Positions 10,842 through 11,440 of a stretch of 38,131 nt of DNA are shown in pieces. The notes below the pieces were generated by a model. That model saw only the letters and a program-made list of their open reading frames with translations. It made no database searches and was not told the DNA's origin. Source of the stretch: Planctomycetota bacterium (GTDB lineage: Bacteria > Planctomycetota > Phycisphaerae > SM23-33); the NCBI GenBank assembly GCA_024275995.1, contig JAJRYB010000054.1:1-38131 (forward strand), written 5' to 3'. Numbering within the stretch: the stretch's first letter is position 1; each line of letters opens with the position of its first letter. Both the position numbers and the translations under genes were made by a program.

Positions 10842-10971
10842 CAGGGATGAACTCAGATAAACGCAGATGAGAAAGAAAATATATCCACATAAAACACCGG
10901 CGAAAAAACGAAAAAACGTTTAGCAGGGATGAACTCAGATAAACGCAGATGAGAAAGAAAATATATCCACA
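10829..10971 (+). repeat. Perfect 61-bp direct repeat in tandem (10829-10889 and 10911-10971, 82-bp period)
   Basis: aaaaaacgtttagcagggatgaactcagataaacgcagatgagaaagaaaatatatccaca occurs twice; each includes the left inverted repeat and the first codons of the GxxExxY gene. Confidence 0.95.
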
Positions 10972-11440
10972 CGAAACTCTGACGCACGAGATCATCGCGG
11001 CTGCCTTTGAAGTCTCCAACTCCCTGGGGTGTGGATTCCTGGAGAAAGTCTACGAAAACGCCCTGGTTGTGGAGTTGAAGCGACGAAATCTCTCATCGGC
11101 ACAGCAGGTTCCGGTTCGCGTATTGTATCAGCAGGAAACGGTCGGACAGTACGTCGCAGATATGGTTGTCGAGAATGCCGTACTGGTCGAGGTGAAGGCA
11201 ACGTTGGAGAACCATTCGCTTTTCATCGCACAAACCCTCAACTACCTGCGAGCAACGAATCTGCCTGTCGGGTTGTTAGTTAATTTCGGACGTCCCAAAC
11301 TGGAATATCGCAGGCTTGTGCTTACGGATCTGCCGGAATGAGAAAACCCGGGATCGAAAGATTGTTATTCAGAGCACATCTGAATTGCCCCTACCAGACA
11401 ATCAAGTATTATCTGCGTTCATCTGCGTTCATCCCTGCTA
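10921..11440. mobile_element. Candidate GxxExxY cassette bounded by 30-bp terminal inverted repeats
   Basis: Left 10921-10950 tagcagggatgaactcagataaacgcagat; right 11411-11440 is its reverse complement at 28/30 positions; encloses a single ORF. Confidence 0.6.
10949..11341 (+). CDS. GxxExxY family protein (PD-(D/E)XK nuclease-like)
   Basis: HEIIAAAFEVSNSLGCGFLEKVYENALVVELKRR (GFLEKVY), AVLVEVKA, LNYLRATNLPVGLLVNFGRPKLEYRRLV. Confidence 0.88.
   Translation: MRKKIYPHETLTHEIIAAAFEVSNSLGCGFLEKVYENALVVELKRRNLSSAQQVPVRVLYQQETVGQYVADMVVENAVLVEVKATLENHSLFIAQTLNYLRATNLPVGLLVNFGRPKLEYRRLVLTDLPE

What the first reader, a model, noticed from the sequence alone, without database searches (positions are those of the whole stretch)
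10921..11440. GxxExxY gene packaged between 30-bp terminal inverted repeats, inserted between nusB and ftsY
Seen directly: tagcagggatgaactcagataaacgcagat (10921-10950) and its reverse complement at 11411-11440 match at 28/30 positions and enclose a single gene, a GxxExxY-family (PD-(D/E)XK-like) protein. The arms are themselves a 10-nt micro-repeat (gaacgcagat gaacgcagat). GxxExxY proteins are known as multi-copy small proteins in environmental bacteria. I infer a ~520-bp cassette in which a nuclease-fold protein acts on or mobilises its own inverted-repeat termini.
Basis: partly seen in the sequence, partly recalled or inferred. Interest (0 to 1): 0.85.

Follow-up and report, generated by a model that had tools for sequence, protein, structure and literature searches.

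The report
Nuclease gene inside three-word inverted repeats
A small RecB/Cas4-like nuclease gene (GxxExxY family) sits between inverted arms, each built of three short words; in many bacteria this gene-plus-arms unit behaves as a mobile element with many gene-less copies, and the protein's lineage predicts the spelling of its arms, so an unexplained gene family and an unexplained class of repeats turn out to belong together.

Summary
The 30-nt arms (10921-10950 / 11411-11440, 28/30) flank a GxxExxY gene (TIGR04256; PD-(D/E)XK fold). A tandem duplication adds a second left arm upstream (10839-10868). All five GxxExxY genes in this genome, one more of them in this window (33312-33778), have such arms, each with its own words. 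Elsewhere arms flank 77/112 genes in the phylum (controls 0/336) and 53/75 in named genomes of many phyla (controls 1/219). An arm is typically three 7-nt words (C-R-C-V-R-A-K) spaced 8-10 nt; left and right arms share spacing in 57/59 elements. On the protein tree the last word base (G or T) changes 4 times against 36 when shuffled. Copies 86-95% identical lie in unrelated flanks; congeners show precise empty sites. This genome holds about 20 gene-less inverted pairs, and arm abundance in 250 genomes follows gene presence (71/125 versus 12/125). Best reading: a REPIN-like mobile element family with a RecB/Cas4-type nuclease that recognises its own arms. Mobility of the unit is well supported; the nuclease's role is inferred. 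No target-site duplication was found. IVP/S23 genes show the same layout with 7-nt words.

The parts
10839..10868 (+). Extra left arm (duplicate), TAGCAGGGATGAACTCAGATAAACGCAGAT; its first 3 nt are the nusB stop codon
   Evidence: sequence
10829..10984 (+). Two tandem copies of a segment (10829-10902 and 10911-10984, 82-nt spacing, 93%) covering the nusB 3' end, the left arm and the first GxxExxY codons
10921..10950 (+). Left arm of element 1: three T-type words (AGCAGGGAT / AACTCAGAT / AACGCAGAT), spacing 10,10
10949..11341 (+). GxxExxY protein (130 aa), PD-(D/E)XK nuclease fold: G29xxE32xxY35, D71, E81xK83, Q95xxxY99
   Evidence: AlphaFold2 pLDDT 93.9; Foldseek: Cas4-like SSO0001, lambda exonuclease
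11411..11440 (-). Right arm of element 1 (inverted): TAGCAGGGATGAACGCAGATGAACGCAGAT on the minus strand
33312..33338 (+). Left arm of element 2: ACCACAAAGAGCACAAAGATCACGAAG, G-type words, spacing 9,9; starts 11 nt after the stop of the upstream radical-SAM gene
33399..33749 (+). GxxExxY gene of element 2 (conserved domain 33399-33743, stop 33747-33749; no in-frame ATG seen at its start)
33752..33778 (-). Right arm of element 2 (inverted): ACCACAAAGGACACGAAGAACACAAAG on the minus strand
10410..10841 (+). nusB, upstream host gene
11466..12383 (+). ftsY, downstream host gene

Best explanation
The unit is a compact mobile element of about 0.5 kb: arm - GxxExxY gene - inverted arm. Each arm is typically three 7-nt words with core C-R-C-V-R-A-K, spaced 8-10 nt (about one helical turn) in a geometry set by the element. 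The protein is a minimal RecB/Cas4/lambda-exonuclease-type PD-(D/E)XK nuclease. The most likely mechanism is that a GxxExxY oligomer binds the three words of each arm, brings the two inverted arms together and cuts at or near them, so that the unit is excised or copied into intergenic DNA, often just after the stop codon of a co-directional gene. The same protein would act in trans on gene-less inverted pairs, which outnumber gene-bearing copies, as RAYTs are thought to do for REPINs. Shown here: discrete unit with unrelated flanks, empty sites, gene-less derivatives, dependence of arm abundance on gene presence, and coevolution of protein clade and word. Inferred: binding, cleavage, oligomer, copy versus cut-and-paste.
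For: Arms flank 77/112 GxxExxY genes in the phylum versus 0/336 pseudo-gene controls and 8/300 mismatched pairs, and 53/75 in named genomes of many phyla versus 1/219 controls. Left and right arms have the same spacing pair in 57/59 elements (18.5 expected). On the protein tree the word's last base changes 4 times versus 36.1 shuffled (minimum 27); spacing 30 versus 55.4. Copies 86-95% identical with unrelated flanks, homology ending at or near the arms. Precise empty sites for two elements in congeners with flanks 84-91% identical, and an arms-only derivative at one site. Own genome: 100 G-type arm matches versus 2 reversed-pattern controls; 24 two-sided clusters, 23 pointing inward, 3 holding the gene. 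71/125 gene-bearing genomes have at least 4 arms versus 12/125 gene-less ones, p = 7e-16. Nuclease motifs and fold.
Against: No target-site duplication above the shuffled expectation. No activity is shown. At nusB-ftsY the element may be old: G009 has a probable orthologue, and related arms sit there in several other genera. Gene-bearing copies are usually few per genome. Eleven genomes without a detected gene have 5 or more arms, possibly relics, missed genes or another partner. Arms travel with the gene, so part of the coevolution is inheritance, although other word positions vary much more freely. Empty sites alone do not exclude loss.
Confidence: 0.72

Rival explanations
1. Homing-type selfish nuclease: the protein cuts alleles or gene-less arm pairs that lack the gene, and repair against a gene-bearing copy inserts the gene between the arms. 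The arms themselves spread by another route.
For: A lone nuclease is a usual homing enzyme; gene-less arm pairs stand at the junction where relatives carry the gene, and one congener has arms only at a site occupied elsewhere.
Against: Sites a and b in G224 and G287, and site a in G305, show no arms at all, so the whole unit came or went. Arm abundance genome-wide follows gene presence.
Confidence: 0.13
2. The arms are operator or RNA-processing sites and the gene is a resident regulated gene; paired arrays of short tandem repeats were read as global-regulator binding sites in Geobacter metallireducens.
For: PMC2700814 describes paired tandem octanucleotide or heptanucleotide arrays on opposite strands as putative global regulator binding sites. 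Elements often follow a stop codon inside co-directional gene runs.
Against: Nearly identical units in unrelated flanks and empty sites; copies next to unrelated genes; word spelling tracks the nuclease phylogeny.
Confidence: 0.09
3. The arms are ends recognised by an unrelated transposase and GxxExxY is passenger cargo.
For: IVP/S23 genes have the same layout, so arms could belong to a general machine with exchangeable cargo.
Against: The two families have different word lengths (7 versus 8-10 nt) and the word's last base follows the GxxExxY tree, which cargo would not do; arm abundance follows the GxxExxY gene.
Confidence: 0.05
4. Static gene with chance inverted repeats.
For: Orthologous copies can persist at one locus, for example groEL-dnaJ in four genomes.
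Against: Controls give 0/336 and 1/219; empty sites and multi-copy units exist.
Confidence: 0.01

Closest known systems
REPIN-RAYT system (PMC3116915)
   Same: A partner gene next to inverted repeats, with dispersed gene-less inverted pairs of the same repeat class; repeats and partner protein coevolve; mostly extragenic.
   Different: RAYTs are Y1/HUH transposases and REPs are palindromic; here the protein has the PD-(D/E)XK fold and the arms are direct runs of three words without an internal palindrome. RAYTs are described there as single-copy and incapable of self-mobilisation; here the gene-bearing unit itself occurs in related copies with empty sites.
Insertion sequences with terminal inverted repeats
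   Same: One gene between inverted ends, empty sites, short gene-less derivatives.
   Different: No DDE, HUH, serine or tyrosine recombinase: the only gene is a RecB/Cas4-type nuclease. No target-site duplication detected; ends are a degenerate word grammar.
Paired tandem octanucleotide/heptanucleotide arrays of Geobacter metallireducens (PMC2700814)
   Same: Short tandem words in paired sites on opposite strands at variable distance.
   Different: Read there as global-regulator binding sites; the passages read do not link them to GxxExxY or IVP genes.
Heptamer repeats such as TAACTGA in Beggiatoaceae and cyanobacteria (PMC4679880)
   Same: Intergenic runs of 7-nt words, like the arms around IVP/S23 genes here.
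   Different: Described as direct repeats; the text holds no mention of S23, intervening sequences, four-helix proteins or GxxExxY.
Homing endonucleases of the PD-(D/E)XK fold (own knowledge)
   Same: A lone nuclease as the selfish gene.
   Different: No intron or intein; genome-wide gene-less copies of the ends.

Membership tests
GxxExxY / PDDEXK_3 protein family (TIGR04256, PF13366) | Profile score above curated cut-off | tested here: met
   135.5 bits vs cut-off 35; PF13366 130.7 vs 22
PD-(D/E)XK nuclease fold, RecB/Cas4 type | Catalytic residues and fold | tested here: met
   E32, Y35, D71, K83, Y99 invariant; G29, E81, Q95 at least 90% conserved; AlphaFold2 pLDDT 93.9; best PDB match Cas4-like SSO0001, then lambda exonuclease, TM about 0.5
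PD-(D/E)XK nuclease fold, RecB/Cas4 type | Nuclease activity | not testable with these tools
   needs biochemistry
REPIN-RAYT system | Partner protein is a Y1/HUH transposase | tested here: not met
   only PF13366/TIGR04256 matched; PD-(D/E)XK fold
REPIN-RAYT system | Dispersed gene-less inverted pairs of the repeats that flank the partner gene | tested here: met
REPIN-RAYT system | Repeat units are palindromic (REP) | tested here: not met
   each arm is a run of direct words
Insertion sequence | Terminal inverted repeats around one gene, discrete boundaries | tested here: met
Insertion sequence | Empty sites in relatives | tested here: met
Insertion sequence | Target-site duplication (many families) | tested here: not met
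   longest direct flank match about as in shuffled pairs
Insertion sequence | Recognised transposase or recombinase | tested here: not met
   only PD-(D/E)XK domain
Anti-phage defence gene | Match to a known defence model | tested here: not met
   PADLOC: none

The most novel reading that the evidence does not exclude
GxxExxY elements are a new class of prokaryotic transposable element whose only enzyme is a RecB/Cas4-like PD-(D/E)XK nuclease reading three-word arms, and IVP/S23 four-helix genes drive a parallel class with 7-nt words; together they would account for a large share of the unexplained short tandem-word inverted repeats of environmental bacteria and archaea.
Probability: 0.45. Interest if true: 0.95.

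Novelty: new variant of a known kind. Interest (0 to 1): 0.86.

Why it matters
GxxExxY proteins are common (half of the sampled genomes in this phylum carry them) and unexplained, and so are the dispersed short-word inverted repeats; this ties the two together with testable rules. If the nuclease mobilises the arms it would be a mobile-element enzyme outside the usual transposase and recombinase chemistries, with a readable protein-DNA specificity code (the last base of the word). It also means paired tandem-word arrays previously read as global-regulator sites may be mobile DNA.

Tried and rejected
Plasmids gave only 8 distant hits and phages none, so no strain-level polymorphism there. PDB sequence searches found no homologue (a profile gave only E = 0.03). 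Target-site duplication test negative. Literature searches with DNA strings returned noise, and searches for GxxExxY gave two passing mentions. Defence-system reading tested with PADLOC, no match. Chance repeats rejected by controls. A single fixed TIR sequence rejected: words differ between the five elements of one genome. The L212/L214 length difference looked like an insertion but has no arms.

Full report
WHAT WAS CLAIMED AND WHAT IS THERE. A tandem duplication (10829-10902 / 10911-10984) gives a second left arm. The outer arm's first three letters are the nusB stop codon. A second GxxExxY gene in the same window also has arms, 33312-33338 and 33752-33778.

ALL COPIES IN THIS GENOME HAVE ARMS, WITH DIFFERENT WORDS. 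The genome (2.64 Mb, 134 contigs) has five GxxExxY genes. Each lies between inverted arms, but the words differ: GAACGCAGAT, AACGCAGAG, CACAGAGAA, CACAAAGAG and CACAGAGAG types. A search for one fixed TIR would have missed this.

THE ARMS ARE GENERAL. In 112 non-redundant genes from the phylum, inverted arms score 15 or more in 77, against 0 of 336 pseudo-gene positions in the same loci and 8 of 300 mismatched flank pairs. In 75 genes from named genomes of many phyla, including one Methanosarcinales archaeon MAG (L213), the count is 53 against 1 of 219.

THE GRAMMAR. An arm is typically three words with core C-R-C-V-R-A-K. G-ending words are mostly spaced (8,8), (8,9) or (9,9); T-ending words (9,9), (9,10) or (10,10). 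Left and right arms of one element have the same spacing pair in 57 of 59 cases, against 18.5 after shuffling within class. The outer edge is usually TTTTAA before the first CC. The window's element 1 is T-type with spacing 10,10; element 2 is G-type with 9,9.

PROTEIN AND WORDS COEVOLVE. On a tree of 116 proteins the last base of the word changes 4 times; shuffled labels need 36.1 on average and never fewer than 27. Spacing needs 30 against 55.4. The second word position, an internal control, is near random (31 against 38.5). Because arms travel with genes some correlation is expected, but only certain word positions are held, which points to recognition. Residues that separate the two classes include positions 114, 98, 67, 33, 30, 70 and 102.

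THE UNIT MOVES. Copies 86-95% identical in DNA lie in unrelated flanks, and in the g190 set the homology stops at the arms; in the L136/L159 pair it runs about 20 nt beyond the left arm, and in L126/L140 one left arm is missing. In genus g190, genome G283 has two elements in one gene run (the encoded peptides look like NADH-dehydrogenase subunits, my reading). G224 and G287 have both sites empty and G305 has the first empty, with flanks 84-91% identical. G295 has an arms-only derivative at the first site. Insertion b replaces the 3' end of the upstream reading frame. No target-site duplication is seen. Elements often start just after the stop of a co-directional upstream ORF (65 of 81 co-directional).

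GENE-LESS COPIES. In the window's genome the G-type pattern gives 100 arm matches against 2 for the reversed pattern; of 24 two-sided clusters 23 point inward, 3 hold a GxxExxY gene and about 20 do not. T-type hairpins without a gene occur at C10, C40 and C44. In 250 genomes, 71 of 125 with the gene have at least 4 arms, against 12 of 125 without it (p = 7e-16).

THE nusB-ftsY SITE. Of about 22 relatives in the family with both genes in view, about 10 have a short plain junction. G009 has a probable orthologue of the window's gene (63% identical protein). Several others have gene-less hairpins whose outer word resembles AGCAGGGAT, or hairpins of other words, and G013 has an IVP/S23-like gene there. 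The element is therefore probably old at this site in the family, with losses and replacements. In G000 and G009 the inner words differ while left and right arms still agree, which suggests concerted change of the two arms (inference).

THE PROTEIN. AlphaFold2 gives a confident model (pLDDT 93.9, pTM 0.87). Closest PDB folds are the Cas4-like SSO0001 and lambda exonuclease; closest viral models are small PD-(D/E)XK nucleases. Motifs GxxExxY, D, ExK and QxxxY match RecB/Cas4-type nucleases (family reading from own knowledge).

A SECOND FAMILY. IVP/S23 four-helix genes (PF05635) in the relatives have inverted arms in 39 of 46 cases against 0 of 138 controls, made of 7-nt words. Two unrelated proteins, each with its own word length, use the same layout.

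WHAT IS KNOWN. REPIN-RAYT is the nearest functional parallel (PMC3116915); the protein and the repeat structure differ. Paired tandem-word arrays were described in Geobacter as putative global-regulator sites (PMC2700814) and heptamer repeats in Beggiatoaceae and cyanobacteria (PMC4679880). I found no paper in the held library that links either to GxxExxY or IVP; subscription papers are not held, so absence is not proof.

LIMITS. Most genomes are draft MAGs. Arm scoring can miss degenerate arms. Empty sites do not by themselves separate gain from loss. Binding, cleavage and movement by the protein are inferred.

Noticed in passing
L161-L210 (PF05635 genes in relatives): IVP/S23 four-helix genes sit between inverted arms of 7-nt words (39/46; controls 0/138); 33/38 arms have period 7. 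Worth its own study, including 23S rRNA intervening sequences.
   Followed up: partly
window 10800-10841: The nusB 3' end carries extra arm-like sequence (TTAGCAGGGAT at 10807), giving NusB a C-terminal tail; similar AGCAGGGAT-like ends occur at nusB in other genera (L058, L069, L066).
   Followed up: partly
L062 and L053, nusB-ftsY junction: Gene-less inverted hairpins of other word classes (ATCCGAAAT; CACTAAATCC) stand at the same junction; their partner protein, if any, is unknown.
   Followed up: no
L017, L096, L093, L144: The groEL-dnaJ junction holds GxxExxY elements in several genomes of the same class, with arms that changed on both sides.
   Followed up: partly
window 33340-33400: The second GxxExxY gene has no in-frame ATG near its conserved start; it may use a rare start or be decaying.
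   Followed up: no
G000:C117:2140-2263: Longer run of TTCACGAAG/TTCGCAAAG words (more than three) on one side, suggesting arm expansion by slippage.
   Followed up: no
L306 about 2770-3140 (G305, site b): An unrelated insert of about 372 nt with its own inverted short-word ends occupies the site where G283 has a GxxExxY element.
   Followed up: no
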